Assembly (NCBI GenBank): GCA_946406585.1
Contig: CAMJLI010000005.1
Coordinates: 1-33,871 of the forward strand
Length of the DNA: 33,871 nucleotides
Reading direction: 5' to 3'
DNA from: an uncultured Prevotellaceae bacterium
GTDB taxonomy: Bacteria > Bacteroidota > Bacteroidia > Bacteroidales > Bacteroidaceae
The stretch's first letter is position 1, and every line of letters begins with the position of its first letter. Positions 8,301 through 29,278 of the stretch are shown in pieces. The translations under genes and the position numbers were made by a program. The notes under the pieces were generated by a model. That model saw nothing but the letters and a program-made list of their open reading frames with translations. It made no database searches and was not told where the DNA came from.

Positions 8301-9077
8301 TCATTTCCAGTAATATACGCCACTGTGATAGGATATCCGTTCTTCTTCAGGAGGCAGTTGCATGTAGTCTCCGTAGCAATGTGTGAGATAATCGTGATAT
8401 CTCTTGATTCCCCTGTATTTGTGGCCTTCGAAGTCCACGTCGATTTGCTCTTCAAAGACATCGAAGTCAAAAATGTTGACGCGTTTTAACCCCCCTGCGT
8501 GGAAGAAGTTCTTCGCCCCTTCGTAGGGATAGCTGAACAGCACGGTGTCATGGTATTCCCGGGTTATGTGGTCGAATCCCGGAATGGTACTTATCGGAAG
8601 CCTCCTCTCAAAGCGTTGTTTCCATATTATTATGTTGGACCGCTTTTTATACAAAGATTGAATGTCTCTAAGGAAAGCTTGTATCTCCTCTTCGCTGTCT
8701 GGCATCCCTACAACAGGGTACAAGTCGATGTTTACACCGTATGTATGGTCGAATTGCCCCGTCTTGCAGTATGTGGGCTCGTAGCCTATTCTGGAAAAAT
8801 GATAGTCGAAATGCTTGTATGTATCGATGTCAAGATATTTCAAGTCCTTCGATTTGAATTTCTTTTTGAACACTTGCATGTCGGGCAATGGCATTATTAT
8901 GTCCATGTCGTCATCCCATGGGATGAAACCTTTATGGCGTATTGCTCCCAATAACGTTCCGAAAGCCAAGGAATATCTGATGCCTTCAGTTCTGCAAAAA
9001 GCATCTATTTCATCCAGCATGTTCAATTGGATGTTTCTTATTTCAGCTTGTGAAAGTCTTTCTCCTTTTTTCATCAA
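8301..9077 (-). CDS. LicD family phosphotransferase
   Basis: 258 residues. LicD proteins have a nucleotidyltransferase-like fold and attach phospho-alcohols such as phosphocholine, from CDP-activated donors, to surface glycans. The hallmark GTLLGAIRHKGFIPWDDDMD is complete (about 40-59; Asp55, Asp56, Asp57 and Asp59 probably bind metal), followed by a D-Y-P region (NIDLYPVVGMP). It is the last gene of the accessory cluster, 22 bases after the small unknown gene, and abuts argS. A TagD-like cytidylyltransferase at the other end of the cluster could supply its donor, but the alcohol cannot be read from sequence. Confidence 0.85.
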   Translation of the reverse strand: MMKKGERLSQAEIRNIQLNMLDEIDAFCRTEGIRYSLAFGTLLGAIRHKGFIPWDDDMDIIMPLPDMQVFKKKFKSKDLKYLDIDTYKHFDYHFSRIGYEPTYCKTGQFDHTYGVNIDLYPVVGMPDSEEEIQAFLRDIQSLYKKRSNIIIWKQRFERRLPISTIPGFDHITREYHDTVLFSYPYEGAKNFFHAGGLKRVNIFDFDVFEEQIDVDFEGHKYRGIKRYHDYLTHCYGDYMQLPPEEERISYHSGVYYWK

Positions 9078-9099
9078 ATAAAATGGTGTTCGGTTTTTG

Positions 9100-9495
9100 T
9101 TAGGATTTGTTGGCTATTCTTTGGCGAATGTCCTCCATTTTCTGCAATCTGTCAGCGGAGTATAGCTTGCCTTGCCTGTCGACATATTCGAAGAGTGTCA
9201 GTGCGCGTTCAAGCAATGTCTCATTGATGGGATATGCTCTGGTGTCAGCCTCTACGTAATATAGTTCTGCGAGCATTTCGGCACGGTCAATACGTTGGTC
9301 TTCGGGGTATTTCGTAAGGTGCTCCAATGCTTCGTCCACTGTGGCGTTTTGGTAGAATTCATATCCTCCAAGATATTGCTCATACAGATCGTGTATGGCT
9401 TTGCTTCTGTCTTCGATGTCTTTGATGTTCATGGCTCGTGCCAAGGCATCGAAGAAGGCACGGATGACACGTATGAAATAGTCTTGTCTTATCAT
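9100..9495 (-). CDS. Small helical protein of unknown function
   Basis: 131 residues with no signal peptide or membrane segment. The N-terminus (MIRQDYFIRVIRAFFDALAR) recalls small DUF6483-type proteins that start with a QDY..R.I helix, but this is a weak resemblance. The remainder looks all-helical and TPR-like (ALEHLTKYPED, AELYYVEADTRAYPINETLLERALTL), which suggests a protein-protein interaction role. It lies 7 bases after the CarB-like ATP-grasp gene and before licD, so it belongs to the same transcript. Function not recognised. Confidence 0.65.
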   Translation of the reverse strand: MIRQDYFIRVIRAFFDALARAMNIKDIEDRSKAIHDLYEQYLGGYEFYQNATVDEALEHLTKYPEDQRIDRAEMLAELYYVEADTRAYPINETLLERALTLFEYVDRQGKLYSADRLQKMEDIRQRIANKS

Positions 9496-9502
9496 GCTGT
9501 TG

Positions 9503-10708
9503 TCACTTTATGTGAAGTAAGTTTTTTATTCTTTGTTTTATGAGGTCCATGGGGAACCGTCTTGTTATTTCCAAATAAGGCATTTCATCTGTCGGTTCGT
9601 TCATCAATGCCACGTCTGCTTTTTGCTGGAGTGACCTGAAATCCTTCATCGACCTCAAGCCGAAGGCAACATCGTCTAATGCCACTTTCTCGTTGATGTA
9701 GCTGCATTCTCGTTGGATGGTTGAGACAGGGATTTCCAGCACGTCTGAATAGGCACTCCTCACCATCATCGAGGGCAGGTTCACGCCAGCCTTGGTGATG
9801 GCATATCCATAGGCAGCATAGCGGAGGTTGAGTTCTATGAAGTAGACCTTTCCTTTAGATATTGCCAAGTCAACATTGAATAGTCCAAACAATCCGATGG
9901 ATTTTACGAGATTGGCAACCTTTTCGGTGAGTCCTTCGCCCTCCTTCTCTTTCCTCACCTTTCCGAATACAGACACCCCTTTGTGTGCGCCACGGCCAGA
10001 CTCCAGCAATTCCACGATGGCAGGCACCACGCATTGTGTTCCGTCGCAGAATCCCATTATGCCCAAGTCTTTCTCTGTTTCAATGTATTCCTCCACCATC
10101 AATGGATGCTTGGCAGTGCGTCCCAATTTGTCCAAGGCGCGTGTCAAGTCTTCTTCTGTGTCGAAACGCCCTTGGCTGGATTTCATAGTGTGGTAGCTCA
10201 GCAGACCTTTCAAATAGCAAGGGAAGGTGATGCCTTGGGGCAGAACATAATGCCCGTCATGATGTTCCACCACCCAACTTTTGGTGATGTCGAACCCCGC
10301 TTGTAAAGCCTGTTGTTTTTGCACCTGTTTGTTCATGAGCCTGCCAATCTCCCCTTGTTTGTTGTTGATGTGGGCGAAGTGGAAATGCTCTCTCAGTTTG
10401 TCGAGCGAACTGTCAACAAGGTGTGCGGAGTCGTCGTCTACAGACAAGATCAGTGGCTTGCCATTTTTGTCAGCACATTGGTGGAGTAGCAGTTTGCACA
10501 GTCCGTCAGCATCAAATTTTATGGCACGAAGAAGCCTCTTCACATACATGGAATGACAATCCACCGGTTTGATATCCTTTTTTGGTATCTCACCTACCAT
10601 GTCCACCACGGTGATGTCGCAGGGGGTCACCTCGCCGATGGAGCGTATCAAGCTCAGGCGGGTCATGGGATTGCTGCCAATGATGATGATGCTTTTTTTC
10701 TTGGTCAT
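9503..10708 (-). CDS. CarB-like ATP-grasp domain protein (carboxylate-amine ligase candidate)
   Basis: 401 residues. An N-terminal Rossmann-like pre-ATP-grasp domain (IIIIGSNPMTRLSLIRSIG) precedes an ATP-grasp fold with MVEEYIETEKDLGIMGF and the metal/ATP-binding FIELNLRYAAYGYAI (Glu292, Asn294, Arg296). Such proteins activate a carboxylate as an acyl phosphate and join it to an amine or thiol. It differs from the four sugar-transfer-associated ATP-grasps in this cluster and looks closer to CarB/PurK-like ligases seen in polysaccharide loci. It is far too short to be carbamoyl-phosphate synthase. Substrates are unknown; the context suggests an amino acid linked to a surface component. Confidence 0.78.
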   Translation of the reverse strand: MTKKKSIIIIGSNPMTRLSLIRSIGEVTPCDITVVDMVGEIPKKDIKPVDCHSMYVKRLLRAIKFDADGLCKLLLHQCADKNGKPLILSVDDDSAHLVDSSLDKLREHFHFAHINNKQGEIGRLMNKQVQKQQALQAGFDITKSWVVEHHDGHYVLPQGITFPCYLKGLLSYHTMKSSQGRFDTEEDLTRALDKLGRTAKHPLMVEEYIETEKDLGIMGFCDGTQCVVPAIVELLESGRGAHKGVSVFGKVRKEKEGEGLTEKVANLVKSIGLFGLFNVDLAISKGKVYFIELNLRYAAYGYAITKAGVNLPSMMVRSAYSDVLEIPVSTIQRECSYINEKVALDDVAFGLRSMKDFRSLQQKADVALMNEPTDEMPYLEITRRFPMDLIKQRIKNLLHIK

Positions 10709-10766
10709 GGTACGCGTTGCCCAGTTCTTTCTTCCAGCAAGTCTTCTATTCCCTTTATTGTTGTTG

Positions 10767-11861
10767 TTAGAATATTTTTAACAATTCTTTCATTTTCAGA
10801 TGAATTCGGTGGAGAATAGCCCATTTATCCTTTATTAGACAACCTATATAAAGATTCAATAAAACTTCCTTGAGGCTTTGTTTTCTCCGATGGACAATCA
10901 GGTTGCTTTCAGTCAACTCGGTATGATATTTATTGATATCCCATCGACTTCCATTCAAAGACAACTTCAAAACCATCCCCAATCTTTCCTTTTGGGATAC
11001 ACGCTTATAACTTAAGGATTCTACTATTTTGAAAGAATTGACTACTTTGATGTCTTGGCTTGCCAACTCTTCATCAGTAGGATAATAAGATATTCTGGGT
11101 TTTACAATATATCTGTCAGGAAAGGCAAAATTGCCCAAGTTCATTGCTATTACACCTTCGTGGTATTTGATGACAGGCTGTACAATATGTGCATGGCTGC
11201 CAATAACACCACTTGCCCCAGCCTCAATGATTTGATGTGCTTCTCTTTCCTCTTCTAATCTTGGATATGCTGTCCCTTCTTTTCCCCAGTGAGGCATCAC
11301 GAAGACATAATCATACATTCTCTTGTATTTATTGACATCTTCTATCACCCGCCCCAATTCGAAAATATTGACTCCTCCTACTTGCTGTGTGGGTCTGTAT
11401 GCTTCTCCTCTATAGAGGTATTTGTATTCCTTAAGATAGCCTAAAAAACAAAGAGTTTTTCCTTTATGTTCAAGGATTAAAGGTTGGGCAGCCTCTTCTG
11501 CATTGTGCCCTGCACCAAAATGTTTGATTCCATTTAGATCCAGAAGCTCCATGGTATGATAAAGGCCTTCAAGGTCGCAATCGCATGAATGGTTGTTTGC
11601 CAAACTGACAGCATCGATTTTCATCTTTATCAGCATGTCTATACACTTGTCTGGAGAATAGATGATGGTGCCCAGTTCTGCGTTGTTCTTTTTGTGGCAA
11701 AGACGAGACCCGTCTCCGAAAGCCGTTTCCAATGTTCCTATTCGAAGGTCACAATCGGACAAGTAGTGCAGCACCTTGTCTTCAATGCCGCCTTGCCTGA
11801 CAAACATGCCGCCAGGCATGATGTCACCCACAAAAGCGATTGCAAGCTTTTCGTCGTCCAT
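10767..11861 (-). CDS. CapA family protein (poly-gamma-glutamate capsule-type metallophosphatase fold)
   Basis: 364 residues. It carries the PGA_cap fold, a calcineurin-like metallophosphatase relative: VGDIMPGG (Asp13), ETAFGD (Glu45), SLANNHSCD (Asn90, His91), MPHWGKEG (His191, Glu195) and GSHAHIVQ (His223, His225). CapA proteins help synthesise or move poly-gamma-glutamate capsules, though many family members sit in polysaccharide clusters without CapB or CapC, as here. No signal peptide is seen, so it is probably cytoplasmic. It follows ATP-grasp copy A by 3 bases. A hydrolase acting on a phospho or peptide intermediate is one reading; the reaction is unproven. Confidence 0.82.
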   Translation of the reverse strand: MDDEKLAIAFVGDIMPGGMFVRQGGIEDKVLHYLSDCDLRIGTLETAFGDGSRLCHKKNNAELGTIIYSPDKCIDMLIKMKIDAVSLANNHSCDCDLEGLYHTMELLDLNGIKHFGAGHNAEEAAQPLILEHKGKTLCFLGYLKEYKYLYRGEAYRPTQQVGGVNIFELGRVIEDVNKYKRMYDYVFVMPHWGKEGTAYPRLEEEREAHQIIEAGASGVIGSHAHIVQPVIKYHEGVIAMNLGNFAFPDRYIVKPRISYYPTDEELASQDIKVVNSFKIVESLSYKRVSQKERLGMVLKLSLNGSRWDINKYHTELTESNLIVHRRKQSLKEVLLNLYIGCLIKDKWAILHRIHLKMKELLKIF

Positions 11862-11864
11862 ATA

Positions 11865-12998
11865 TCACAACCTTTTGTATATGCAGTCACGTGCGAGTTG
11901 AGACCACGTGTTTTTCTTTTTCATCGCATCCTTCACTATCATCTCTGTATGCTCCCCGAATGCTGGTCCATTGGCAGATTGGCTTAAGTCGGGGTTGACA
12001 TTAAACTCTATCATTATGGGCTTCCCTTCTTTGTCAATGGCTATGTCCCATCCCACCAAACTGAAAAAAGGAAGTTGCAAATGCAATTTTTTTGTCAATG
12101 CCACCGCGTTTTCAAACGATGGGATTTCATAGCCATCAAGTTTGACGCCAGAGTCGGTATATTCCACTTTGTCGATGCCAGGTGCCCCATAGGCATATTT
12201 GGCAATCCGTCCATCGCTATTGATTCGGGCACTGATACCGCCAGCACTTTCATTGTCTATTGTTTGGTCTTTCCTTCCTATTCGAATTACGCTATAGGCT
12301 ACCACAACTTCCATGTCTTTTCTGTATGTCAACAAGCGAATTGTATTCACAGATGTGGGGTTCAGAGCCTCCATTCTTTGGTGCTGATGAACAACTTCCT
12401 GTATCATATAATCTTTCTTGTATTCATCAAACAAGTCAGACAAAGACAAATTGTCTTTGATGTTGGTGCCATCTATCACATGCAGTTTCTGTATGCCGCG
12501 TCCTCGTGAAAGAGTTGATGGCTTGATGATGGCCTCACCTATATTTCTACATTTGTCTATTGCTTGCTCTCTTGAAACCGCCATGCCTTCAAAAAAGAAA
12601 CAACCATTCATGTTTTTCAGAATGATCTTCGGCTGAGGAGCCATGGGCAGAATCAAGTCTGTTATGTTCTTGTCTGTATATGCTTTTTTCAAGGTGTAGT
12701 CGTTGAGCCGCCCCATGATTTCCGTGCGATAGAGGCTTGTGGGCATGTATTTGACAGAAAAGACATCGGTTCTTGAATAAAAATAACGATGCCAATCAAG
12801 TGGCACCTGATGTCCCAATAAAGCTGTGTAGTATTCTTGAATGTCTCGCTTTTGTTCATTTGTCAAGTCTTTCTTGCGAGTTAGTTTGTCATAACTATTC
12901 TTTATGCCCGCGATATAAGATTCTCTTTCACTTCTATCTTTGTATTTAGATAATACTATTATTAATCTATTTACAAGTGAATATAAGATTTTAGACAT
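11865..12998 (-). CDS. Sugar-transfer-associated ATP-grasp protein (copy A)
   Basis: 377 residues of the ATPgrasp_ST family (PF14397 type), predicted amidoligases or kinases tied to cell-surface polymer synthesis. The ATP-grasp core shows IIKPSTLSRGRGIQ (glycine-rich loop), LNPTSVNTIRLLTYR, GWDIAIDKEGKPIMIEFNVNP (Glu331, Asn333, metal ligands) and DLSQSANGPAFGE. The N-terminal ~90 residues contain DWHRYFYSR, shared with copy B. Copies A and B form one subtype, marked by PDLSQ-A-GPAFG. It is followed by the CapA gene 3 bases on and preceded by a 176-base AT-rich gap. The substrate cannot be inferred from the sequence. Confidence 0.82.
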   Translation of the reverse strand: MSKILYSLVNRLIIVLSKYKDRSERESYIAGIKNSYDKLTRKKDLTNEQKRDIQEYYTALLGHQVPLDWHRYFYSRTDVFSVKYMPTSLYRTEIMGRLNDYTLKKAYTDKNITDLILPMAPQPKIILKNMNGCFFFEGMAVSREQAIDKCRNIGEAIIKPSTLSRGRGIQKLHVIDGTNIKDNLSLSDLFDEYKKDYMIQEVVHQHQRMEALNPTSVNTIRLLTYRKDMEVVVAYSVIRIGRKDQTIDNESAGGISARINSDGRIAKYAYGAPGIDKVEYTDSGVKLDGYEIPSFENAVALTKKLHLQLPFFSLVGWDIAIDKEGKPIMIEFNVNPDLSQSANGPAFGEHTEMIVKDAMKKKNTWSQLARDCIYKRL

Positions 12999-13174
12999 TA
13001 TTATAAAGTTTATATTATACTTTTCTAAAAATATTAGTGTATGGTGTTTTTGCCATAATCAATTTGCAAACAAACTAATCATGAAGATGGAACTATAATA
13101 ATCTTTGCATTAACATGCTTCTTGCATTTACTTTCAAGTCATTGGTGTATGCACAGCCATGCTATTCATGATTA

Positions 13175-14311
13175 TTAGTTCTTTGACAACCACAATCTTG
13201 AATCAAAAGTATCAGGCTGAGCCAATGCGAACTTTACAATATCCTCTGTCATATCACCAAATGCGGGGCCATGGGCTGTCTGACTTAAATCTGGACAACG
13301 ATTCCATTCTATCATGATAGGGCGCCCTTCGCTATCAATACCAAAATCCCAACCAATAATATGAAAATATGGGAGTCGAAGGTGCAAGTCCTTAACGATT
13401 GATATCGTCTCCTTAAAAGACGGTATTTCAAATTCTTTTAATATAGTACCGATATCTGTCATGGTGATTCGCTTCTCGGCAGGGGTTCCATAAGCACAGT
13501 CCTTGATGCATCCACTTGAAAGATCTATGTCTGCATTAATTCCCCCTGCTGTCTCATTGTCAACAATTTTATCTTTTCTTCCAATACGCACGACAGCATA
13601 CAAAATAATTACCTCATCACCATGTCTATACGACAATATTCGTAAAGTATTCAAAGAGGTAGGGTTCAGACGAGCCATTTCCCTATGCTGAACGACCTTC
13701 CTTTGTATGATAAAGTTCTTTCCAAATTGATTAAACAAATCATTAATAGATTCGCTTTCTTGAATCATTCCTTTTTCTGATGAAAAAATCCTAACTCCTG
13801 TACCCCACTTCCCAATCATCGACGGCTTTATCACAACATCTTCTAAATTTTGACATCTCTCTAATGCTTCTGCTCTGCTAATAGGTTTTTCCGCATCATA
13901 GAAATATCCGTTAATATTTCTAATAATTGTCTGAGGTCGCCATACGTCAGTTAAGTAATTATCATAAGAGTTCTTGTCTGTATAAGCCATCGTCAATGGG
14001 CGAGAATTTAAACGAAATATAATGCTGGAGTGGTACAAGCACGTTGGAATATATTGCAACGAATATTCTCCATTGCGAGAGTAGAAATATTCATGCCAAT
14101 AAACAGGAACATCTTTGCCTGTAAGTGTTTTCCAGTATTCCTTTATGTCTTTTATTTGTGTGGCTGATAATTGAACGACATCACATTGTGACAATTTTTC
14201 TTTGATATTGTTTATGTCCTCTTCATACCATAACTTCTCACGAAGTGAAGTCATCGCTGAATGTACATTACGTTCAAAACGACGAAGTCTTTTTATTGTT
14301 GGCTTTTTCAT
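13175..14311 (-). CDS. Sugar-transfer-associated ATP-grasp protein (copy B)
   Basis: 378 residues, the closest paralogue of copy A. Matching segments include WHEYFYSRNGEYSLQYIPT, MAYTDKN, VVIKPSMIGKWGTGV, RLNPTSLNTLRILSYR and MIEWNRCPDLSQTAHGPAFG (Glu335, Asn337). Metal and ATP-binding residues are intact, so it should be active. Its DNA is visibly more AT-rich than argS or ribD, and a 176-base AT-rich gap separates it from copy A, which hints at separate acquisition or loss of a gene between them. As for copy A, the family role is a predicted ATP-dependent ligase or kinase in surface polymer synthesis. Confidence 0.82.
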   Translation of the reverse strand: MKKPTIKRLRRFERNVHSAMTSLREKLWYEEDINNIKEKLSQCDVVQLSATQIKDIKEYWKTLTGKDVPVYWHEYFYSRNGEYSLQYIPTCLYHSSIIFRLNSRPLTMAYTDKNSYDNYLTDVWRPQTIIRNINGYFYDAEKPISRAEALERCQNLEDVVIKPSMIGKWGTGVRIFSSEKGMIQESESINDLFNQFGKNFIIQRKVVQHREMARLNPTSLNTLRILSYRHGDEVIILYAVVRIGRKDKIVDNETAGGINADIDLSSGCIKDCAYGTPAEKRITMTDIGTILKEFEIPSFKETISIVKDLHLRLPYFHIIGWDFGIDSEGRPIMIEWNRCPDLSQTAHGPAFGDMTEDIVKFALAQPDTFDSRLWLSKN

Positions 14312-14358
14312 AATCCAGTATAAATAAAGGTATCTCTAATAATTTGCAGGTCAAACTC

Positions 14359-15576
14359 TTATATCCCATTCTTGCTTGATTTGGCACTTCTAAAAATAGA
14401 ATGTATTTGACCTTTGTCATCAAAAGTAATTGATACTTTGGGCAATCTTGTAAATGTATGCATTTTGATATGTTCCATGATTTCGTCCAAGTCTTCTTTT
14501 TCGAACATCGGCCCATTGGCAATCTGGCTTGTTCCCAATCCAGGCTGAAAATTATATTCAATAATCAACGGATGGCCATCGGGGGTGACAGACATGTCCC
14601 AGCCAATGAGTGCAAATTGAGGAAATCGAGTGTGCATGAATTTCACAGCTTTCACAACTTTGTCGAAACATGGTATCTTCTCTGGAATGCTGTCGTCCAA
14701 AAAGGTGGTTTTGAGATTCCGATAGTGATGTATTTCACGTTTCACCGTTCCGTCAGGCATGATGGCACAAAAACCTCCTGTTCCTTTAGGGTCGTCAGCG
14801 TTGTCGTACACCTTTCCTTTGCCACCAAAGCGTTGTGATGCATAAAGAACTTTAACATTACCTCTAAAGTCCATATATGTAGTGATACGAATGGAATTGA
14901 CTGAAGTTGGATTGAATGCAGCAAGATGAGGATGTTGGATGATTTTCTTTTGTACTGTGAAATTATTATCATATTTGGAAAATAAATCTTTGATAATCTC
15001 TTTTGAGAGATTGCCCCTTTCTATAAGGGCAACACCCCTTCCATGAGTGGAGTCTAATGTAGGCTTGATAATCATGTCTTCCTTGTAATCCATGACAAGT
15101 TCAATGGCTTTTTCCAAATTGCATGGGTCGTCATTTGGCATGTAGAAGCATCCATTGTCGCAATATACTATGCATTCTGCCATCTGAATGTCTATGTGTT
15201 TTTGAGCCTCCTTGATATTCAGAAAGCGAGAAAACATGTTCTTCTCTGTATAAGAGACCCTCCATCTTTCAGGATTAAGATAAGGGTATAGAAACATCTT
15301 ATAGAATGACAATGGAATGTATAGGTCTGACTTGATTCCATTGCATTGATAATAATATTCATTATCCAACATGGAATACTTGAAACCATATTTTTCAAAA
15401 TAAGGATTGATTTTTTTTACGTATGGTTTCCAATCAAAATCCGGATCCATGATCTTTTTTTTGAAACTATTGATGCCATCTTGGTAAGTTAGTTCTTCTT
15501 TGGATGGAAGTGTATGGCAATATAGTTTCCAAAGAAAAGACTGTAAATATTCTTTTATAAATGTAATCATAAGCAA
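14359..15576 (-). CDS. Sugar-transfer-associated ATP-grasp protein (copy C)
   Basis: 405 residues. The same ATP-grasp core as copies A and B is present: IIKPTLDSTHGRGVALIERG, FNPTSVNSIRITTYM and GHPLIIEYNFQPGLGTSQIA (Glu340, Asn342). However, it carries the NGPMFEKEDLDEIMEH ending and the MDPDFDWKPYVKKINPYFEK start region shared with copy D. C and D are therefore a second subtype, distinct from A/B, and may use a different substrate. It starts 16 bases after the flippase gene ends, so export and ligation genes are cotranscribed. Confidence 0.82.
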   Translation of the reverse strand: MLMITFIKEYLQSFLWKLYCHTLPSKEELTYQDGINSFKKKIMDPDFDWKPYVKKINPYFEKYGFKYSMLDNEYYYQCNGIKSDLYIPLSFYKMFLYPYLNPERWRVSYTEKNMFSRFLNIKEAQKHIDIQMAECIVYCDNGCFYMPNDDPCNLEKAIELVMDYKEDMIIKPTLDSTHGRGVALIERGNLSKEIIKDLFSKYDNNFTVQKKIIQHPHLAAFNPTSVNSIRITTYMDFRGNVKVLYASQRFGGKGKVYDNADDPKGTGGFCAIMPDGTVKREIHHYRNLKTTFLDDSIPEKIPCFDKVVKAVKFMHTRFPQFALIGWDMSVTPDGHPLIIEYNFQPGLGTSQIANGPMFEKEDLDEIMEHIKMHTFTRLPKVSITFDDKGQIHSIFRSAKSSKNGI

Positions 15577-15592
15577 TGAAGTTTTTTTGTTA

Positions 15593-17071: not shown

Positions 17072-17133
17072 AAAGTCATCCTTTCGTAATAATTACAAAT
17101 TAAATTTTTATTCTTATAAAGGGCTTCATATGA

Positions 17134-18282
17134 CTAAAGGAAATAGAACCTTTGCACGCGTTTTGACAGTTGGCACAACACTTCGTAGCCGATGGTGTTC
17201 AAGTCGGAAGCCATGTCGTCGGCATTGTATGACAGGTTGCCGCTCTTGCCGAGTATTATGGCATGTGTTCCCATCTTGACGGATGGTATGTCGGTGACAT
17301 CTACAAGTGTCTGGTCCATGCAGATTCTTCCCAATATGGGAGCCTTGCAGCCATTTATAAGGACATTGCCTGAATTGGAAAGATGCCGGTTGAGGCCGTC
17401 TGCATAGCCTGTGGCCACGGTTGCCACGGTCATTTCCTTGTCTGCCTTGAAGGTGCGTCCATAGCCTATTGTCTCGCCAGGATGCACTTGTTTTACCATC
17501 GATATGACAGACTTCCACGATAGCGCCGGCTCTATGCCTTGCGGCAGTTCATTGGACACGTCAGGTTTCAGTCCATAGAGTATGATTCCCAATCTCACGA
17601 TATTGCCGATGGTTTCATAAAATGGTGTGTCGTCGAGATAGAAAAGCCCTGCTGCCGAGTTGCAGCAATGGATATATGGCAAATTCAAGTCGGAAATCCT
17701 GTCTGCCACGTCTTTGAACTTGTTCAGTTGGTCGTGTGTGAATGCAATGTCCGACTCGCTGTTCCCGTCAGCCACGCATAAATGTGTGAATATGCCATTG
17801 ATATGAAGCAGTTTGGAATAATTACGGATGGTTTGCTCGCATTCTTCTGGTTGGTCAGCATCGATGCCTATCCTATTCATGCCGGTGTCTATGGCAAACT
17901 GACACTTGATGTCAATTCCAGTATTGGCAAGTTGTTCGGCATATTGTTCCGACACAATGGCTTGGGTAAGGTCTTGGTCGTGCAGTGTTCTTGCGTAATA
18001 TGGGGAAGAATAGCCCAAGATGAGTATTTCTCCCTTTATGCCAGCTTCCCTTAGACATACCGCTTCGTCGATGTTGGAAACGGCAAACATGTTTACACCC
18101 AAGTCGGAAAGCAAGCGTGCCACCTGTACGTCGCCATGCCCATAGGCATCTGCCTTGATGACAGCCATTATCTCTGCATCCCGCTTCAGGCATTTCTTAT
18201 AATTGATGTAGTTGTTCATGAGTTGTGTCATGTCAATTTCAACCCATGACCGTTTTTCTATTTGGTTGGCGTGAACCTCCAT
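17134..18282 (-). CDS. alr: Alanine racemase (stand-alone)
   Basis: 382 residues, PLP-dependent fold III, interconverting L- and D-alanine. The PLP lysine is Lys43 (VIKADAYGHG) and the second catalytic base is Tyr274 (IGYGRTF); GYADGLNR (292-299) and GRICMDQTLVDVT also match. By eye, the carbamylated Lys of the Geobacillus enzyme is Ala130 here (FAIDTGMNRIGI), and the position of its Tyr354 is Lys374 (CQLSKRVQRF). Specificity for serine or another amino acid is therefore possible. In Bacteroidales the housekeeping racemase is, as I recall, fused to MurF, so a free copy 6 bases after ddl within this cluster suggests a dedicated role. Confidence 0.88.
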   Translation of the reverse strand: MEVHANQIEKRSWVEIDMTQLMNNYINYKKCLKRDAEIMAVIKADAYGHGDVQVARLLSDLGVNMFAVSNIDEAVCLREAGIKGEILILGYSSPYYARTLHDQDLTQAIVSEQYAEQLANTGIDIKCQFAIDTGMNRIGIDADQPEECEQTIRNYSKLLHINGIFTHLCVADGNSESDIAFTHDQLNKFKDVADRISDLNLPYIHCCNSAAGLFYLDDTPFYETIGNIVRLGIILYGLKPDVSNELPQGIEPALSWKSVISMVKQVHPGETIGYGRTFKADKEMTVATVATGYADGLNRHLSNSGNVLINGCKAPILGRICMDQTLVDVTDIPSVKMGTHAIILGKSGNLSYNADDMASDLNTIGYEVLCQLSKRVQRFYFL

Positions 18283-18288
18283 GTTTTG

Positions 18289-19257
18289 TCAGTCTATTAA
18301 GTCTCGTTTAGCTTCATATCCAAGAAGCAGCGTTTTTTCCACCAGTTCCTCAAATGATATGCCCATGAAGCGCGCTGCAGCAGGGAAGAGGCTCATGGCC
18401 GTCATTCCAGGCAGGGTGTCCACCTCGATGATCATGGGGCCTTTGACCTTGTCCACTATGAAGTCCATTCTGGAGAGGCCCCGGCAGTTGAGCAACCTAT
18501 AGGCTTCAAGCCCAATGGATTCCACTTGCTTTGCTGTGGCTTCATCAATGCATGCTGGGATAATATGTTGGCACAGTCCCTTGGTGTATTTGGTTTCATA
18601 GTCGATGAACTCTCGTTCAGAAACGATCTCTATGATGGGTAGTGCCATAGGGTGCTCGTTTCCCATGATTGGCAAAGACAATTCCACGCCTTCAAGGAAT
18701 TGCTCCACCAATAGTTGGTCACCGTATTTGAACGCTTCCTCCAAGGCATTTTGTATGTCTTCCTCTTTTCTCACCATCACAATGCCGATGCTCGAACCTT
18801 GGCTTGATGGTTTGAATACCAAAGGCAACCCAAATGTCTCTTTGATGTGTTGTGAGAAAATGTTTATGTCTTTGATGTCGTCTTTATAATATGCCTCGAA
18901 CTTGGCTGTTGGAAGGCCTGCACTCTCAAGGAAACGCTTGGTCACAACCTTGTTCATGCATACTGCGCTGCTGCAAATGCCCGGTCCGGTGTATGGTATG
19001 TTGGCCCATTCCAGAAAACCTTGAATGGATCCGTCCTCGCCGCCTTTGCCATGAAGGGCGATGTAGACCATGTCAGGCTTTTGCTTGATGATGTCTATGG
19101 CATTGTCGCGTGCGAGATCGAAAAGAGAGGCATTTTCATAACCTAACTTGAGCAAGGCTTGGTGAATGGCCATGCCGCTCAGAAGCGATATTTCACGCTC
19201 GGAGGAAATACCGCCACATACTACCAAAATCTTATTGTCTTTGCTAATTGTGTTCAT
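18289..19257 (-). CDS. ddl: D-alanine--D-alanine ligase (Ddl type)
   Basis: 322 residues, ATP-grasp fold. Visible features are GGISSEREISLLSG (Glu22, catalytic Glu), ALHGKGGEDGSIQGFLE, KPSSQGSSIGI, YETKY (Lys223-Tyr224) and the metal-binding EVDTLPGMTAMS (278-289), where Asp280 stands for the usual Asn. The Tyr of YETKY is the residue that goes with D-Ala-D-Ala rather than D-Ala-D-lactate formation. The sequence looks more like Proteobacterial/Firmicute Ddl than the Bacteroides housekeeping enzyme that I recall. Its alr neighbour could supply D-Ala. It may serve peptidoglycan, or make a D-Ala-D-Ala unit for the cluster's product. Confidence 0.88.
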   Translation of the reverse strand: MNTISKDNKILVVCGGISSEREISLLSGMAIHQALLKLGYENASLFDLARDNAIDIIKQKPDMVYIALHGKGGEDGSIQGFLEWANIPYTGPGICSSAVCMNKVVTKRFLESAGLPTAKFEAYYKDDIKDINIFSQHIKETFGLPLVFKPSSQGSSIGIVMVRKEEDIQNALEEAFKYGDQLLVEQFLEGVELSLPIMGNEHPMALPIIEIVSEREFIDYETKYTKGLCQHIIPACIDEATAKQVESIGLEAYRLLNCRGLSRMDFIVDKVKGPMIIEVDTLPGMTAMSLFPAAARFMGISFEELVEKTLLLGYEAKRDLID

Positions 19258-19305
19258 TCCAATTTTAATCCCTTGTCACCATATTTCATGGTTGTTGAAT
19301 ATTTA

Positions 19306-19914
19306 TTATTGCCGACCTAAGATGCAACGATTAATCCAACTTATTGTCTTATAAAGATACTTGTTCCTTATGAAACAGAGAGAACAATGAAGATTCGAAT
19401 AAGGGCGCTTGTTCAGCCATTTTATCATCAAGACCGAGTTGTGGTCGGAGCGAATAGCATAATCAACTAGAGAGAATCCTCTCTTCTTGCTCATGTCAAT
19501 TATCTTCTTGTTGTTTTCATGTGTATCGAAATATACTTTATCCACTCCCTTTGATAGGATATAATTTTCTCGCGCCTGTACCAATGCCTTATAAACGCCT
19601 TTGCCCGCGAACTCTGGGAGAACGGAGCCAAAACAAATATATCCAATACGCCCCTTGGCACACCACCATTTTATTTCTCTGATGGCAACCGCACCTGTTC
19701 CAACCAACCTTCCTTTCAGCAAGGCAACAAACATCACCCCTCCCATCTTGTCAATCTTTTCCTTTATCTCATCTGGTGGTAGAAAAGGGTTGTGCATGTA
19801 TATTCCTTCTTCTATGTTCTTTTGGTGAGCATGTCGAAGAACTTGGCTGATATCATCCCATGTGATGTTGTGTGGTTTTACAATGACTGATAACTCTCTG
19901 TCGTCTTGCATCAT
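19306..19914 (-). CDS. GNAT-family N-acetyltransferase-like protein
   Basis: 202 residues. The acetyl-CoA-binding motif A is visible as SVLPEFAGKGVYKALVQARE (about 98-116), with the preceding beta strands GVMFVALLKGRLVGTGAVAI. GNAT enzymes transfer acyl groups from acyl-CoA to amines, and some family members instead act as aminoacyl transferases on peptides. A basic, Cys-containing tail of ~30 residues follows MIKWLNKRPYS. Between ATP-grasp copy D (24 bases upstream) and ddl, it may acylate or aminoacylate an amino sugar or amino acid in the product. Substrate unknown. Confidence 0.75.
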   Translation of the reverse strand: MMQDDRELSVIVKPHNITWDDISQVLRHAHQKNIEEGIYMHNPFLPPDEIKEKIDKMGGVMFVALLKGRLVGTGAVAIREIKWWCAKGRIGYICFGSVLPEFAGKGVYKALVQARENYILSKGVDKVYFDTHENNKKIIDMSKKRGFSLVDYAIRSDHNSVLMIKWLNKRPYSNLHCSLCFIRNKYLYKTISWINRCILGRQ

Positions 19915-19938
19915 CTTAAATCAATTATGATAGCAACA

Positions 19939-21120
19939 TTACATGCCCAGGAATTTTAAAAGAACTGTTTTCCTTTCAGGAAAATCAGAAAAACGAATGA
20001 CAGGAAAAGGATGGTAGGATGCTTTTGGTTTTGCAATATGTGTCATGATTTCATCAAGGTCTTCTTTACAAAACATCGGACCGACCGCTTGCTGCAAACC
20101 TACACCAGGTCTTGGATTGAATTCAATCAATACCACTTTGCCTTCAGGAGTCAAAGTGAAATCCCAACCAACAATGTTCAATTGTGGTAATCTGCCATGC
20201 AAGGATAATACCGATTTCACCAGTTTATTCCAAAAGGGAATCTCATTTGGCAATTGTTCGGAGAGCAATGGTGAGTCCATTTGGAAATATGTATGCCGTT
20301 TCCTGTCAAGAAGCGTTCCTGTTTTTATGTTGATGCCTGTGAAACCGCCACCGGAACAAACGTTGTCCATTACAGAACCCTCACCGCCAAAGCGCAAACA
20401 AGCATAGAGTATTTTGCAAACTTTGTTGAAATCCCGATAAGTGACAATTCGAATGGTGTTTACAGATGATACATTATACTGTGCCAAAATAGGATGTTGC
20501 TTGATTATCTTTTGAAAGATATAGTTGTATCGGTATTTGTCAAACAACAGTTTGTATTCTTCTCTGGTGGTGTTGCTTGAAACTTTTATGATTCCATGTC
20601 CGCCATAAGATTCTACAGATGGTTTCAAAATGGTATCCTCGCCATTGCTTACAAGCAAGTCAAGGGCGTCGTCTTCCGAACACTCGTTGTCGTTGGCATC
20701 AAAGAAAATGCCATTGTTGTTGCATATTACGGTTTCAGGTATCTCAATGTCCAAAGCAGGGTCTGGCAAACGTAGAAAAAGCCTTTGTGCATTTTTGTCC
20801 ATATAGGCTGGCAAAAAGTCATATCTGTCCAAAAACGGGTATATATAATGCACAGCCATGGAACGAGTCACATAATGATTGGCTCTGATTCCAGATACGT
20901 GACTATAATATTCGGCATCTAATTGAGAAACAGAGAACCCCCATTTTTGAAAATATTCATTCTTCTTTTCTACATGATTTTTCCATGGAAATTGTGGATC
21001 CATCTCATTGTTTAGGAACATGCGTAGGTCAAAAGCCTGAAAATGTTCTGACATGGTAGGAGAAAAGTGCTCCCATGCGCGATAGAACGCAGCACCTATT
21101 TTGTTTTTTATTTTATTCAT
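19939..21120 (-). CDS. Sugar-transfer-associated ATP-grasp protein (copy D)
   Basis: 393 residues, the partner of copy C. Shared segments are MDPQFPWKNHVEKKNEYFQK near the start, ILKPSVESYGGHGIIKVS, NVSSVNTIRIVTYRDF and VVLIEFNPRPGVGLQQAVG (Glu333, Asn335), ending PMFCKEDLDEIMTHI. The ATP-grasp residues are intact. It is separated from copies A-C by the GNAT, ddl, alr and flippase genes, so it probably acts at a different step. The family is predicted, not proven, to form amide bonds or phosphates in surface polymer assembly. It lies 68 bases downstream of the opine dehydrogenase gene. Confidence 0.82.
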   Translation of the reverse strand: MNKIKNKIGAAFYRAWEHFSPTMSEHFQAFDLRMFLNNEMDPQFPWKNHVEKKNEYFQKWGFSVSQLDAEYYSHVSGIRANHYVTRSMAVHYIYPFLDRYDFLPAYMDKNAQRLFLRLPDPALDIEIPETVICNNNGIFFDANDNECSEDDALDLLVSNGEDTILKPSVESYGGHGIIKVSSNTTREEYKLLFDKYRYNYIFQKIIKQHPILAQYNVSSVNTIRIVTYRDFNKVCKILYACLRFGGEGSVMDNVCSGGGFTGINIKTGTLLDRKRHTYFQMDSPLLSEQLPNEIPFWNKLVKSVLSLHGRLPQLNIVGWDFTLTPEGKVVLIEFNPRPGVGLQQAVGPMFCKEDLDEIMTHIAKPKASYHPFPVIRFSDFPERKTVLLKFLGM

Positions 21121-21188
21121 CGCAGGCTGGTGAACTATTTCATGGAGGTTCGCCGATTCTTTATACTCTAATTAGGGTGGCTTGCAAC

Positions 21189-22271
21189 TTAACTGATAGC
21201 ATCTTTGATGTCATCGATTGTCACGTCTTCTTTTCCCAGCAAATATTGTATTGTGCGTGATTTCGCTTTAAGGTCTTTTCCCAACAACGCAGATGCCAAT
21301 GTCATGATGCTTTCCTGGATGCTTGTGTCATGGCCAAGTACCTTGCCTATTGAGATGTAAAGACCGAGCCCCATGGGGACGTCTTCGTTGAGATAACGGT
21401 GGTCGATGAATGACGGGCCTTTGTTTGAAGATTCCCCGAAAGAATGGAATACATCCATTGCCGGAATGCTCAGGTCTTCTTCATTGCGCCATTTTGCAGC
21501 CTCGAAATAGTCCAAGGGTTCGCATCCAAAGGCTTCCAAGATTTTGTTCTTTCGCTTGTCAAATTCTTGAATCACACGAACCACCGATGGTGTGAAGGCT
21601 TCCCTATACATCCAAAATTCACCACCACTATGTTCTATTCGTGATGCAGAAAAGAGGATGCCTATAGGATGGACAATCATGTTTGGATTGTGGATAGCCG
21701 ACTCCAAAATGTTCTTTCTGAGATATTTTGTGTTGTCGAACAATTGAGACAATTTGCCCAGCACCTCTTGGTTTCTTTCTGACGGCAATACTGAGATGGC
21801 ATTTCTTGGATTGTAGAAAGTAATGCGTACAAAACTGCCATCTATTATGCGTCCGTTATATGCTGTAGTCTCCCATTCTGAATATGTGACGTCTTTTTTT
21901 ATGTATTTCTTGAATATCAAACTTCCCATGTACCCTGGGCAAAGAACTATCAGTTGGCCGTCACGTACATAAGGTGCTATGATTTTGGCCACGTCTTCGT
22001 GCTGAAGGGTTGTTGTCATTACAAATATGACATCTGCAAAATCTATCGCTTTCTTCACATCACGTGTTATGAATTGCATTTTTGCTGTGAATTTCTTTCC
22101 TTTATTAGTCAAGTCCACAACATCATACTCTCCTTTTTCTGCAATTCTATTGAAAAAATCCATGTTTCCATAGCTGGATGTTTTCAACACGCTAACAGGA
22201 AATCCTTTCTCATAAATTTTAGCGGCGTGAATCAGTCCTGCATTGCCACTGCCTATTACTGTTATTTTCAT
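21189..22271 (-). CDS. NAD/NADP octopine/nopaline dehydrogenase family protein
   Basis: 360 residues. An N-terminal Rossmann fold opens with MKITVIGSGNAGLIHAAKIY (GxGNxG at residues 7-12). The C-terminal domain has the family-specific NPNMIVHPIGIL, SGGEFWMYREAFTPSVVRVI and EAFGCEPLDYFEA. The family reductively condenses an amino acid with an alpha-keto acid to give an opine; some relatives act on other substrates. Opine-type residues such as N-(1-carboxyethyl)alanine are known components of some O-antigens. With alr and ddl in the same unit, an alanine-derived substrate is plausible. It starts 37 bases after the cytidylyltransferase gene. Glycerol-3-phosphate dehydrogenase shares the N-terminal fold but not this C-terminal domain. 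Confidence 0.82.
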   Translation of the reverse strand: MKITVIGSGNAGLIHAAKIYEKGFPVSVLKTSSYGNMDFFNRIAEKGEYDVVDLTNKGKKFTAKMQFITRDVKKAIDFADVIFVMTTTLQHEDVAKIIAPYVRDGQLIVLCPGYMGSLIFKKYIKKDVTYSEWETTAYNGRIIDGSFVRITFYNPRNAISVLPSERNQEVLGKLSQLFDNTKYLRKNILESAIHNPNMIVHPIGILFSASRIEHSGGEFWMYREAFTPSVVRVIQEFDKRKNKILEAFGCEPLDYFEAAKWRNEEDLSIPAMDVFHSFGESSNKGPSFIDHRYLNEDVPMGLGLYISIGKVLGHDTSIQESIMTLASALLGKDLKAKSRTIQYLLGKEDVTIDDIKDAIS

Positions 22272-22308
22272 ATTTTAATGATTATAATGTCACAAAAAAA
22301 TATTGTGG

Positions 22309-22713
22309 TTATTTCGACTTGCTATAGTTTCGCAACATGGTGGACGAGATGCCCTCAGTCCTAGGAATGATGACCACTTCCTTGCCATTTTCCTTGCACC
22401 ACTCAACTGCTCGCTGGAATCCCGAATGTATTTGGTCGGGGCCTTTGGCGAATATGTCGAAGTCATTCTGCTGGATGTCGATGTCCACATCCTTGTAAGT
22501 GACCACCTCGTCGACATATTTGATGCAGCTGACCATGTAAAGGCGCTCCTCGGTGGTGTATACCATGTCGGCCTCGGGCTTGTATTTCTTGATGAAGTCG
22601 CCGTCTTGAACGGCAACGGTCAGGTGGTCGCCTAATTCCTTGGCACGCTTGAAAAGCAAGATGTGCCCTATATGCAACATGTCGTAAACTCCGAAAGTTA
22701 TTACTTTTCTCAT
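22309..22713 (-). CDS. Cytidylyltransferase, glycerol-3-phosphate (TagD) like
   Basis: 134 residues, a complete small nucleotidyltransferase. It has the HxGH motif (HIGH, 14-17, in GVYDMLHIGHILLFKRAKEL) and the C-terminal RTEGISST (118-125) that is characteristic of TagD/GCT enzymes making CDP-glycerol from glycerol-3-phosphate and CTP. Related enzymes make CDP-ethanolamine or activate heptose phosphates, so the alcohol is not certain. It is the first gene of the accessory cluster, behind a TAATTTTG element. With LicD at the far end of the same cluster, it probably supplies a CDP-alcohol donor for phosphodiester attachment. Confidence 0.82.
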   Translation of the reverse strand: MRKVITFGVYDMLHIGHILLFKRAKELGDHLTVAVQDGDFIKKYKPEADMVYTTEERLYMVSCIKYVDEVVTYKDVDIDIQQNDFDIFAKGPDQIHSGFQRAVEWCKENGKEVVIIPRTEGISSTMLRNYSKSK

Positions 22714-24795: not shown

Positions 24796-24814
24796 CCATG
24801 GCGAGCCAATGAGT

Positions 24815-26950: not shown

Positions 26951-26984
26951 GGATGTTAGGATTCTTAGGTTTTTCATATATGAA

Positions 26985-28198: not shown

Positions 28199-29278
28199 TT
28201 ATTGTTCATCAGCTTTGTGGTGCAACTTTCTTGCGAATTTCATGTCGTGGTCTACCATGATACGCACCAATTCTGAGAAAGATGTCTTCCTTGGCTCCCA
28301 CCCAAGCACATTTTTTGCCTTTGTGGGGTCGCCCAGCAATTGGTCTACTTCGGCTGGCCTGAAGTATTTGGGGTCCACTTCCACCAGAATGCGCCCTGTG
28401 GCTTTGTCGATACCCTTCTCATCAACACCTTCGCCTTTCCATTCCAAATGTATTCCTACATGTTCGAATGCCAATGTGGCAAATTCCCTCACGGTGTGGT
28501 ATTCCCCTGTAGCTATTACAAAGTCATCGGGTTTGGGTTGTTGCAGGATGAGCCACATGCACTCCACATAGTCTTTTGCATACCCCCAGTCGCGTAACGA
28601 GTTGAGATTGCCAAGGTATAGCTTGTCTTGGTATCCTTGTACGATGCGTGCCACTGCAAGGGTTATCTTTCTGGTGACGAATGTCTCGCCTCGACGCTCG
28701 CTCTCATGGTTGAAGAGAATTCCATTGCTGCAAAACATGCCATAGCTCTCACGATAATTCTTCATTATCCAATAGCCATAAAGTTTTGCCACGGCGTAAG
28801 GCGAACGTGGGTAGAATGGTGTTGTCTCCTTTTGCGGCACTTCCTGCACCTTGCCGAAGAGCTCAGACGTTGAAGCCTGATAAATTCGGCATTCCTTCTC
28901 CAAACCGCAGATGCGAACAGCCTCCAAAAGGCGGAGGACTCCCACGGCATCCGTATCGGCTGTATATTCAGGCACGTCGAACGACACTTTCACATGACTC
29001 TGGGCAGCCAGATTGTATATTTCGGAAGGTCTTGTTTCACCGATAATTCGGATGAGCGATGATGAGTCGGTCATGTCGGCCCAATGCAGGTTGACCAATC
29101 TGTCTTTCTTCATGTCGCGCACCCATTCGTCAAGATACAAATGTTCTATGCGCCCGGTGTTGAATGATGAGGAGCGGCGCATCAATCCATGTACCTTGTA
29201 TCCTTTTTCTATAAGGAATTCAGCCAAATAAGAGCCATCTTGTCCTGTAATACCTGTGATTAGAGCTGTCTTCGACAT
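28199..29278 (-). CDS. gmd: GDP-mannose 4,6-dehydratase
   Basis: 359 residues. It dehydrates GDP-D-mannose to GDP-4-keto-6-deoxy-D-mannose, the precursor of GDP-fucose and GDP-rhamnose. Signature elements are [19 protein letters not shown] (residues 9-27), [45 protein letters not shown] and the catalytic [10 protein letters not shown]. The length is normal for the family. Its neighbours are manC, which makes its substrate, and fcl, which uses its product: a complete mannose-1-phosphate to GDP-fucose path. Confidence 0.95.

What the first reader, a model, noticed from the sequence alone, without database searches (positions are those of the whole stretch)
8301..22713. Glycosyltransferase-free surface-conjugate cluster built on ATP-grasp ligases, D-Ala enzymes, an opine dehydrogenase and CDP/LicD chemistry
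Fourteen minus-strand genes run from a TagD-like cytidylyltransferase to LicD. They hold six ATP-grasp enzymes (four sugar-transfer-associated, one CarB-like, one Ddl), an alanine racemase, an octopine-type dehydrogenase, a GNAT, a CapA protein and a flippase, but no glycosyltransferase that I can recognise. ATP-grasp/GNAT sets are known or predicted amide-bond systems. The inference is a pathway that builds and exports an amino-acid/opine, phosphodiester-linked decoration or polymer.
Basis: partly seen in the sequence, partly recalled or inferred. Interest (0 to 1): 0.75.

Follow-up and report, generated by a model that had tools for sequence, protein, structure and literature searches.

The report
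Amino-acid-rich surface-glycan locus in gut Bacteroidales
A gut bacterium's surface-sugar gene cluster carries six enzymes of a kind that joins amino acids and similar building blocks by amide bonds, plus enzymes for D-alanine and an opine, so it probably makes an amino-acid-decorated surface polymer; it looks free of sugar-joining enzymes mainly because the window cuts the cluster off.

Summary
The 14 genes are present as described: six ATP-grasp enzymes, alanine racemase, D-Ala-D-Ala ligase, opine dehydrogenase, CapA, GNAT, Wzx flippase, TagD-like and LicD proteins, one unknown. No glycosyltransferase family matches inside 8301-22713, but the locus does not stop there: the same strand carries an initiating phosphoglycosyl transferase, GDP-fucose genes and a PseC-like aminotransferase, and the window edge cuts a Wzy_C gene (33455-33871). 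In the syntenic relative G025, five glycosyltransferases lie upstream of that aminotransferase. 'Glycosyltransferase-free' is probably largely a window-edge effect. I read the block as the decorating and export half of a PGT/Wzx/Wzy O-antigen- or capsule-type locus. The ligase richness is real: the four PF14397 ligases fall in four ortholog groups with intact active sites, and in 20 selected genomes 63 of 74 PF14397 hits sit at the opine-dehydrogenase locus. Ddl and Alr differ from those of nearly all relatives examined; the locus sharing three ligase groups has a MurF-like paralog. Likely product: a glycan with amide-linked amino acids, D-Ala or D-Ala-D-Ala, an opine and a phospho-alcohol. 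Chemistry is inferred.

The parts
8301..9077 (-). LicD-family phosphotransferase
   Evidence: PF04991 112.5 bits; 65% to LicD in the G006 locus
9100..9495 (-). 131-aa protein of unknown family (u131); doubtful member, also found beside argS in relatives
   Evidence: no Pfam or NCBIfam hit; 66% in L008 and L009 between helicase and ODH/argS
9503..10708 (-). CarB/PRK12767-like ATP-grasp ligase (AGcarB)
10767..11861 (-). CapA (PGA_cap) metallo-enzyme, possible epimerase or hydrolase
   Evidence: PF09587 171.8 bits; profile hits 8gq9 at 8e-34 (that 8gq9 is the MslH epimerase is recalled)
11865..12998 (-). ATP-grasp ligase AG4 (PF14397)
   Evidence: 152.3 bits; model pLDDT 94.6, best VIA fold matches ArgX, RimK, LysX, Ddl
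13175..14311 (-). ATP-grasp ligase AG3 (PF14397)
   Evidence: 128.0 bits; own ortholog clade
14359..15576 (-). ATP-grasp ligase AG2 (PF14397)
   Evidence: 94.2 bits; own ortholog clade with L003
15593..17071 (-). Wzx-type MOP flippase
   Evidence: PF13440 318.2 bits
17134..18282 (-). stand-alone alanine racemase
   Evidence: TIGR00492 343.6 bits; 32-35% to the Alr of 18 of 20 relatives, 72% in G001, no match in G010
18289..19257 (-). second-type D-Ala-D-Ala ligase
   Evidence: TIGR01205 302 bits; 32-37% to a Ddl in each of 20 genomes, 64% to a second copy in G001 only
19306..19914 (-). GNAT acyltransferase
   Evidence: PF00583 43.6 bits; its family is present in 8 of 8 AGcarB loci among 51
19939..21120 (-). 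ATP-grasp ligase AG1 (PF14397)
   Evidence: 130.8 bits; ortholog clade with L001, L007, L034
21189..22271 (-). opine (octopine/CENDH-type) dehydrogenase
   Evidence: PF02317 107.8 bits; H201, R292, D297 align with H202, R292, D297 of 1bg6
22309..22713 (-). TagD-like cytidylyltransferase
   Evidence: PF01467 73 bits; best solved relative 1coz, glycerol-3-P cytidylyltransferase, 4.6e-21
27109..28188 (-). GDP-L-fucose synthase-like (fcl)
   Evidence: NF047922 430 bits, below its cut-off of 500; 82% in G006 locus
28199..29278 (-). GDP-mannose 4,6-dehydratase (gmd)
   Evidence: TIGR01472 578.3 bits, cut-off 415
29308..30381 (-). mannose-1-phosphate guanylyltransferase-like (manC)
   Evidence: PF00483 127.9 bits; TIGR01479 261.2, below its cut-off of 372.95
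30388..31515 (-). NTP_transf_5 protein, function unknown
   Evidence: PF14907 83 bits
31529..32116 (-). initiating phosphoglycosyl transferase (PGT)
   Evidence: PF02397 199.9 bits; 68% in G006 locus, 72% in G025 locus
32125..33336 (-). PseC-like DegT sugar aminotransferase
   Evidence: PF01041 262.6; TIGR03588 261, below its cut-off of 423.5
33455..33871 (-). C-terminal 138 residues of a Wzy_C polymerase/ligase, cut by the window edge
   Evidence: PF04932 35.7 bits, cut-off 31.7; 48% and 51% to Wzy_C proteins of G006 and G025

Best explanation
The 14 genes are the decorating and export half of a larger PGT/Wzx/Wzy-type surface-glycan locus (O-antigen or capsule) in a Prevotella-like gut bacterium; the locus runs on past the right edge of the window. 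Model: a phosphoglycosyl transferase loads a sugar on undecaprenyl phosphate (an amino sugar from the DegT enzyme is possible), and glycosyltransferases outside the window add sugars, probably including L-fucose. ODH reductively condenses an amino acid with a keto acid to an opine, and Alr and Ddl supply D-Ala and D-Ala-D-Ala. The small-molecule-type ligase AGcarB, with the GNAT, prepares an acyl or amino-acid unit. The RimK/LysX-like ligases AG1-AG4 then amide-bond these units, one specificity each, to sugar carboxyl or amino groups or to one another. TagD and LicD add a phospho-alcohol, CapA trims or epimerises, Wzx flips the unit, and the Wzy_C protein polymerises or ligates it. Shown here: gene content, families, conserved active-site residues, predicted folds, linkage. 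Inferred: substrates, order of steps, linkage chemistry, product.
For: PGT, fcl, gmd, DegT and a Wzy_C C-terminus on the same strand. In G006 relatives of DegT-PGT-NTP5-ManC-Gmd-Fcl, a small unknown, GT2, Wzx, PF14397, AGcarB, GNAT, CapA, AGcarB and LicD form one run with a Wzy_C gene immediately upstream of DegT. In G025 DegT, PGT, NTP5-ManC-Gmd-Fcl and AGcarB-GNAT-AGcarB lie a few kb from GH-helicase-argS, with five glycosyltransferases and a Wzy_C upstream of DegT. PF14397 hits concentrate at the ODH locus: 63 of 74 in 20 selected genomes; of 301 family genomes 35 have any over cut-off. AG1-AG4 keep two Lys, N-x-x-R, Asp and E-x-N, invariant in 66 of 66 full-length family members, and fall in four supported clades with orthologs elsewhere; the closest folds by VIA-align are amide ligases. 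ODH keeps the CENDH His/Arg/Asp. Low-GC core, 0.37-0.41, against 0.48-0.53 in argS, helicase, GH, fcl, gmd, manC. Precedents: a TupA-like ATP-grasp domain amidates GlcA in the Campylobacter capsule (PMC11800379, passages); alanopine on an amino sugar is in the reference list, and N-(1-carboxyethyl)lysine in the text, of PMC10609480 (passages).
Against: No enzyme was assayed and no polymer analysed. No whole genome is held for the window, so its own glycosyltransferases are not seen. Helicase and GH genes (22873-26995) sit between the two blocks, so they may be separate transcription units or even separate pathways. No uronic-acid pathway gene was found in the window, so the acceptor is unknown. 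Two related loci (L025, L028) show no PF00534 or PF00535 hit on their contig, though both are cut by a contig end. Foldseek ranks biotin-carboxylase domains first for AG4 by E-value, so the fold alone does not prove amide ligation. Alr and Ddl are absent from all 51 other ODH loci counted and may be passengers.
Confidence: 0.7

Rival explanations
1. The block builds an essentially non-glycosidic product: a lipid-linked oligo-amide (amino acids, opine, D-Ala) on a single PGT-loaded sugar, exported by Wzx, without further glycosyltransferases.
For: No glycosyltransferase besides the PGT among the window proteins scanned. By my own GT2/GT4 profiles 6 of 15 extended loci have no hit (L003, L019, L022, L025, L026, L028), and two of these (L025, L028) have none on their contig by Pfam either.
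Against: Wzy_C gene at the edge; GDP-fucose genes call for a fucosyltransferase; in G025 a GT11 lies 84 bases before DegT. Nine of the 15 extended loci have a GT4 by my profiles and four more a PF00534 hit on the locus contig, one of them about 35 kb from ODH. L025 and L028 are cut by contig ends.
Confidence: 0.12
2. Alr and Ddl are not part of the pathway: they are an acquired spare or replacement pair for peptidoglycan precursors (for example tolerance to alanine-analogue antibiotics such as D-cycloserine, which hits both enzymes), parked in the operon.
For: None of the 51 other ODH loci has either. In G001 the close relatives of both lie unlinked outside its ODH cluster, and G001 shows no MurF-Alr fusion, so its stand-alone Alr may be the housekeeping one. 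Their GC (0.47-0.48) differs from the 0.37-0.41 core, though AGcarB and TagD are also at 0.48. That D-cycloserine targets both enzymes is recalled.
Against: In line on the same strand, gaps 6-62 bases. In G074 the other close Alr follows a run that I read from my profile labels and N-termini as sugar-nucleotide genes, and is followed by a PF24793 protein cut by the contig end. L007, which shares AG1, AG3, AG4, GNAT, AGcarB, ODH and Wzx, has a MurF-like paralog beside housekeeping MurF.
Confidence: 0.3
3. The cluster makes a secreted small molecule, such as an opine metallophore or a peptide natural product, with Wzx as exporter.
For: ODH + ATP-grasp + GNAT resemble small-molecule peptide pathways (recalled); AGcarB folds like an L-amino-acid ligase and PylC, and also like PurK and biotin carboxylase.
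Against: Wzx matches polysaccharide-flippase families; PGT, GDP-fucose and Wzy genes accompany the set here and in relatives.
Confidence: 0.06
4. The cluster belongs to the anionic-LPS/type IX secretion anchor pathway (Wbp/Vim-type amino-acyl linking sugar).
For: A VimE-like deacetylase (L025 member: NF053580, 89.8 bits of a 440 cut-off) belongs to a cluster with members in seven related loci, next to ODH-Wzx in most; P. gingivalis anchors carry 2-N-seryl, 3-N-acetylglucuronamide (PMC7468200, passages).
Against: No VimE-like hit among the window proteins scanned with NCBIfam; the published pathway assigns the amino-acid transfer to VimA, and its main text does not mention ATP-grasp.
Confidence: 0.08

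Closest known systems
Wzx/Wzy-dependent O-antigen and capsule loci
   Same: PGT, Wzx, Wzy_C, sugar-nucleotide genes, low-GC core, mosaic gene content between relatives
   Different: six ATP-grasp proteins, opine dehydrogenase, Alr and Ddl in one run; no glycosyltransferase seen within the window
Campylobacter jejuni HS:2/HS:19 capsule amidation (Cj1438 TupA-like ATP-grasp domain)
   Same: ATP-grasp amide-bond decoration of a capsule sugar (PMC11800379, passages read)
   Different: there one TupA-like ligase domain fused to a GT2, joining serinol-P or ethanolamine-P; here four separate PF14397 proteins plus a CarB-like one, substrates unknown
Opine-bearing O-antigens (Providencia alcalifaciens O35 alanopine; P. 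rustigianii O14 carboxyethyl-lysine)
   Same: an opine as amide-linked glycan substituent, which an ODH plus a ligase could supply
Teichuronopeptide (TupA) of Bacillus
   Same: ATP-grasp enzyme in a peptide-glycan surface polymer (recalled; only the family name PF14305 appears in calls)
   Different: different ATP-grasp family; TupA-like proteins occur in 21 of 51 related ODH loci but no PF14305 hit was found in the window
Peptidoglycan D-Ala branch (Alr, Ddl, MurF)
   Same: racemase and D-Ala-D-Ala ligase; a MurF-like paralog in the related locus L007
   Different: coded in a surface-glycan run and far from the Ddl and MurF-Alr of most relatives; no Mur ligase in the window

Membership tests
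Wzx/Wzy-dependent surface-glycan locus | initiating phosphoglycosyl transferase | tested here: met
   PF02397 199.9 bits at 31529-32116
Wzx/Wzy-dependent surface-glycan locus | Wzx flippase | tested here: met
   PF13440 318.2 bits
Wzx/Wzy-dependent surface-glycan locus | Wzy polymerase or O-antigen ligase | tested here: met
   partial gene, PF04932 35.7 over cut-off 31.7; the family does not tell polymerase from ligase
Wzx/Wzy-dependent surface-glycan locus | glycosyltransferases | tested here: inconclusive
   none besides the PGT in the window proteins scanned; five upstream of DegT in the syntenic relative G025
PF14397 ATP-grasp ligases | family score and catalytic residues | tested here: met
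   94-152 bits vs 31.4; Lys, Lys, N-x-x-R, Asp, E-x-N in 66 of 66 full-length members
PF14397 ATP-grasp ligases | amide-bond formation on a sugar or amino acid | not testable with these tools
   needs enzyme assay
Opine dehydrogenase | PF02317 and catalytic His/Arg/Asp | tested here: met
   107.8 vs 30 bits; H201, R292, D297 (that these are the catalytic ones in CENDH is recalled)
Glycerol-3-phosphate cytidylyltransferase TagD (TIGR01518) | equivalog score | tested here: not met
   72.5 vs 165.4 bits; CDP-alcohol identity open
Alanine racemase (TIGR00492) | equivalog score | tested here: met
   343.6 vs 168
VanT serine racemase | NF033131 score | tested here: not met
   400.1 vs 460; the best solved relative is nevertheless a serine racemase, 4ecl
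D-Ala-D-Ala ligase (TIGR01205) | subfamily score | tested here: met
   302 vs 245.65; the E-V-N seen in solved Ddl 3v4z reads E-V-D here
VanG D-Ala-D-Ser ligase | NF000091 score | tested here: not met
   215.4 vs 495
MslH lasso-peptide epimerase (NF038314) | equivalog score | tested here: not met
   41.4 vs 700; the wider family PF09587 is met
Wbp/Vim linking-sugar pathway | VimE deacetylase in the locus | tested here: not met
   no such hit among window proteins scanned with NCBIfam; the locus continues outside the window
Non-glycosidic, glycosyltransferase-free system | no glycosyltransferase in the complete locus | tested here: inconclusive
   locus is cut by the window; PGT and Wzy_C present; 13 of 15 extended related loci have a GT4-type hit on the locus contig

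The most novel reading that the evidence does not exclude
A lipid-II-like second glycopeptide: the undecaprenyl-linked repeat carries a branched peptide ending in D-Ala-D-Ala (or D-Ala) plus an opine, built by a chain of dedicated ATP-grasp ligases instead of Mur ligases, flipped by Wzx and polymerised on the cell surface. The window supplies D-Ala-D-Ala with Alr-Ddl and could attach it with AG2; the related locus L007 would attach it with a MurF paralog.
Probability: 0.2. Interest if true: 0.85.

Novelty: new variant of a known kind. Interest (0 to 1): 0.5.

Why it matters
Amino-acid and opine substituents of bacterial surface glycans are known chemically, but I know of few assigned ligases (recalled). 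These loci offer a modular set (four PF14397 clades, CarB-like ligase + GNAT, ODH + Wzx, CapA) in which specificities could be read off by comparing loci and products. If D-Ala-D-Ala really sits on a surface glycan, it would be a new place for a peptidoglycan motif that antibiotics and immune receptors recognise. The case also warns that an apparent absence of glycosyltransferases can be a window-edge effect.

Tried and rejected
Rejected: (1) Housekeeping Ddl: each of 20 relatives has a Ddl only 32-37% identical to the window's, and only G001 has a second copy, at 64%; at E<=1e-70 the type is in 1 of 399 family genomes. The type itself is common in the protein database (at least 712 proteins at E<=1e-80). 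(2) Tandem duplication of the PF14397 genes: four separate clades. (3) Serine racemase / D-Ser ligase: below the VanT and VanG cut-offs. (4) Defence island: no PADLOC hit for the nine cluster proteins scanned; only the neighbouring helicase matched. (5) Recent plasmid transfer: no near match of the 14-kb block among plasmids; AG4 finds 13 plasmid records, all under 60% identity. (6) L007's MurF-like gene as the housekeeping MurF: G005 has another at 349.5 bits.

Led nowhere: Rfam and tRNA scans. Literature: no paper held all the terms opine/opine dehydrogenase/LicD with ATP-grasp and capsule or O-antigen, none named PF14397 or ATPgrasp_ST/TupA; some searches gave listings (in one search, 25 of 54 shown), from which PMC11800379, PMC10609480, PMC7468200, PMC4431377 and PMC2824669 were seen as passages only. 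I saw no description of such a cluster, but these searches cover open-licence papers only.

Weak points of the counts: the 20 genomes and the 15 extended loci were picked from 80 loci mostly because they looked ligase-rich or syntenic, so they are no random sample. 'At the ODH locus' was judged by contig, from coordinates transcribed by hand, with hits below the curated cut-off left out. Gene calls in relatives are longest-ORF calls, which missed a PGT in G025 and argS in G007 until a direct search; families there come from my own profiles at 35 bits or more, and my GT profiles missed GT4 genes that Pfam found. Many loci are cut by contig ends; the 51-locus counts use the unextended stretches.


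Full report
OBSERVATION. The window's minus strand carries, in transcription order from 33871 down: a cut gene, degT, PGT, PF14907, manC, gmd, fcl, a GH-like 726-aa gene, a helicase, then the 14 reported genes tagD, odh, AG1, GNAT, ddl, alr, wzx, AG2, AG3, AG4, capA, AGcarB, u131, licD, and then argS. Gaps between them are 3 to 176 bases.

BOUNDARY. The absence of glycosyltransferases cannot be read as a property of the locus. A PF02397 initiating phosphoglycosyl transferase is at 31529-32116. The last 417 bases of the window (33455-33871) encode the C-terminus of a Wzy_C protein (PF04932 35.7 bits, cut-off 31.7), 48% and 51% identical to Wzy_C proteins of the relatives G006 and G025. ArgS places the window near G001 (90%), G025 and G007 (89%), G006 and G026 (88%); their record titles name Prevotellaceae or Prevotella MAGs (that RUG means rumen is recalled). 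In G006 one run holds relatives of DegT-PGT-NTP5-ManC-Gmd-Fcl, a 113-aa unknown, GT2, Wzx, PF14397, AGcarB, GNAT, CapA, AGcarB and LicD, with Wzy_C directly upstream of DegT. In G025 DegT, PGT, NTP5-ManC-Gmd-Fcl and AGcarB-GNAT-AGcarB stand a few kb before GH-helicase-argS, the window's own site, and within 8.3 kb upstream of DegT are GT2, two GT4, CapA (other strand), Wzy_C, GT4 and a GT11. The window ends just where these would begin. Of 15 related loci read with an extension, 9 have a GT4 hit by my profiles; of the other six, four have a PF00534 hit on the locus contig (G003, G010, G015; in G013 about 35 kb from ODH), and two, L025 and L028, have none for PF00534 or PF00535 but are cut by contig ends.

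RELATIVES. A profile of the opine dehydrogenase matched 125 related stretches in a collection of 84,980 species genomes; the best 80 loci were kept. Of the 51 with ODH at 63% identity or more, 40 have at least one PF14397, TupA-like or AGcarB gene in the fetched stretch, 31 have Wzx within two genes of ODH, 19 have CapA, 8 have AGcarB and all 8 of those have the GNAT (9 loci have the GNAT), 3 have TagD, 2 LicD, and none Alr or Ddl. In 20 selected genomes 63 of 74 PF14397 hits over cut-off lie at the ODH locus; one genome has no hit, and in G006 both hits lie elsewhere, one in its DegT-to-LicD run. Of 301 genomes of the family, 35 have a PF14397 hit over cut-off and only G001 has more than two. 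Content is mosaic: L002 and L006 carry five GT2-type genes each, six loci hold a compact ODH-Wzx-TupA-GT4-GT2 run, and some add teichoic-acid-like genes: TagF-type PF04464 (L081, L086, L090), a TagD fused to a Gfo/Idh oxidoreductase (L086), IspD-like.

D-ALANINE. Each of 20 relatives has a Ddl 32-37% identical to the window's; only G001 has a second copy, at 64%, and only G001 among 399 family genomes passes 1e-70. The window's Alr is 32-35% identical to the Alr of 18 relatives, in 16 of them within a frame of 787 residues or more, as in a MurF-Alr fusion; G001 has one at 72% and G010 no match. At 1e-90, 2 of 301 family genomes have it. In G074 it follows genes that I read as sugar-nucleotide genes from my profile labels and N-termini. 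Against pathway membership: in G001 both genes are outside the ODH cluster, no MurF-Alr fusion was found there, and alr-ddl at 0.47-0.48 GC differ from the 0.37-0.41 core, though AGcarB and TagD are at 0.48 too. For membership: L007, which shares ODH, Wzx, AG1, AG3, AG4, GNAT, AGcarB and a CapA with the window, has a MurF-like protein (TIGR01143 213.6, below the cut-off of 288.6) in addition to a MurF at 349.5 bits elsewhere in its genome. Two related loci thus hold different D-Ala-D-Ala-linked genes. I take this as a lead, not as proof.

OPINE AND PHOSPHO-ALCOHOL. The ODH profile aligns over most of its length with CENDH 1bg6, with His, Arg and Asp kept (their catalytic role is recalled). TagD-like (72.5 of 165.4 bits for TIGR01518) and LicD suggest a CDP-activated alcohol; which one is open.

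VERDICT. A mosaic PGT/Wzx/Wzy surface-glycan locus with an unusually large amide-ligase set. The general reading is likely (0.7); the amino-acid/opine decoration is well motivated but unassayed; the D-Ala-D-Ala-bearing, lipid-II-like reading stays possible (0.2).

Noticed in passing
window 9100-9495; L008, L009: 131-aa protein without any Pfam or NCBIfam match, also present (66%) between a helicase and an opine dehydrogenase next to argS in two relatives.
   Followed up: partly
window 22873-26995; L009, L125, L126, L127, L124: The GH-like gene, helicase and argS lie together in G006, G007, G025 and G026 but not in the G001 stretch; the stretch between helicase and argS varies from about 2 kb (G006, G007, G025) to 9 kb (G026) and 14.6 kb (window).
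   Followed up: partly
window 18289-19257: Ddl has E-V-D where solved Ddl have E-V-N at the metal site; two near homologs (95% and 79%) share it, the 70% and 64% ones have Asn.
   Followed up: partly
L081, L086, L090: Bacteroidales loci with TagF-type PF04464 transferases and a TagD-family protein of about 450 aa, shown in L086 to be fused to a Gfo/Idh/MocA oxidoreductase: teichoic-acid-like genes in Gram-negatives.
   Followed up: partly
L032, L036, L039, L040, L046, L052: Compact conserved cassette ODH-Wzx-TupA-GT4-GT2, a small version of the same idea.
   Followed up: no
L009, ODH starting at 9908: A lone opine dehydrogenase directly before argS in G006, at the window's site, while the ligase-bearing run of that genome (L098) is on another contig.
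   Followed up: no
L121, L122 (G001): Close relatives of the window's Alr and Ddl lie unlinked in G001, which shows no MurF-Alr fusion; the Ddl stands before a sugar-nucleotidyltransferase-like gene (my reading of its N-terminus).
   Followed up: partly
window 24815-26995: 726-aa protein with only a weak GH65N-type match (25.7 bits, cut-off 27.7).
   Followed up: no
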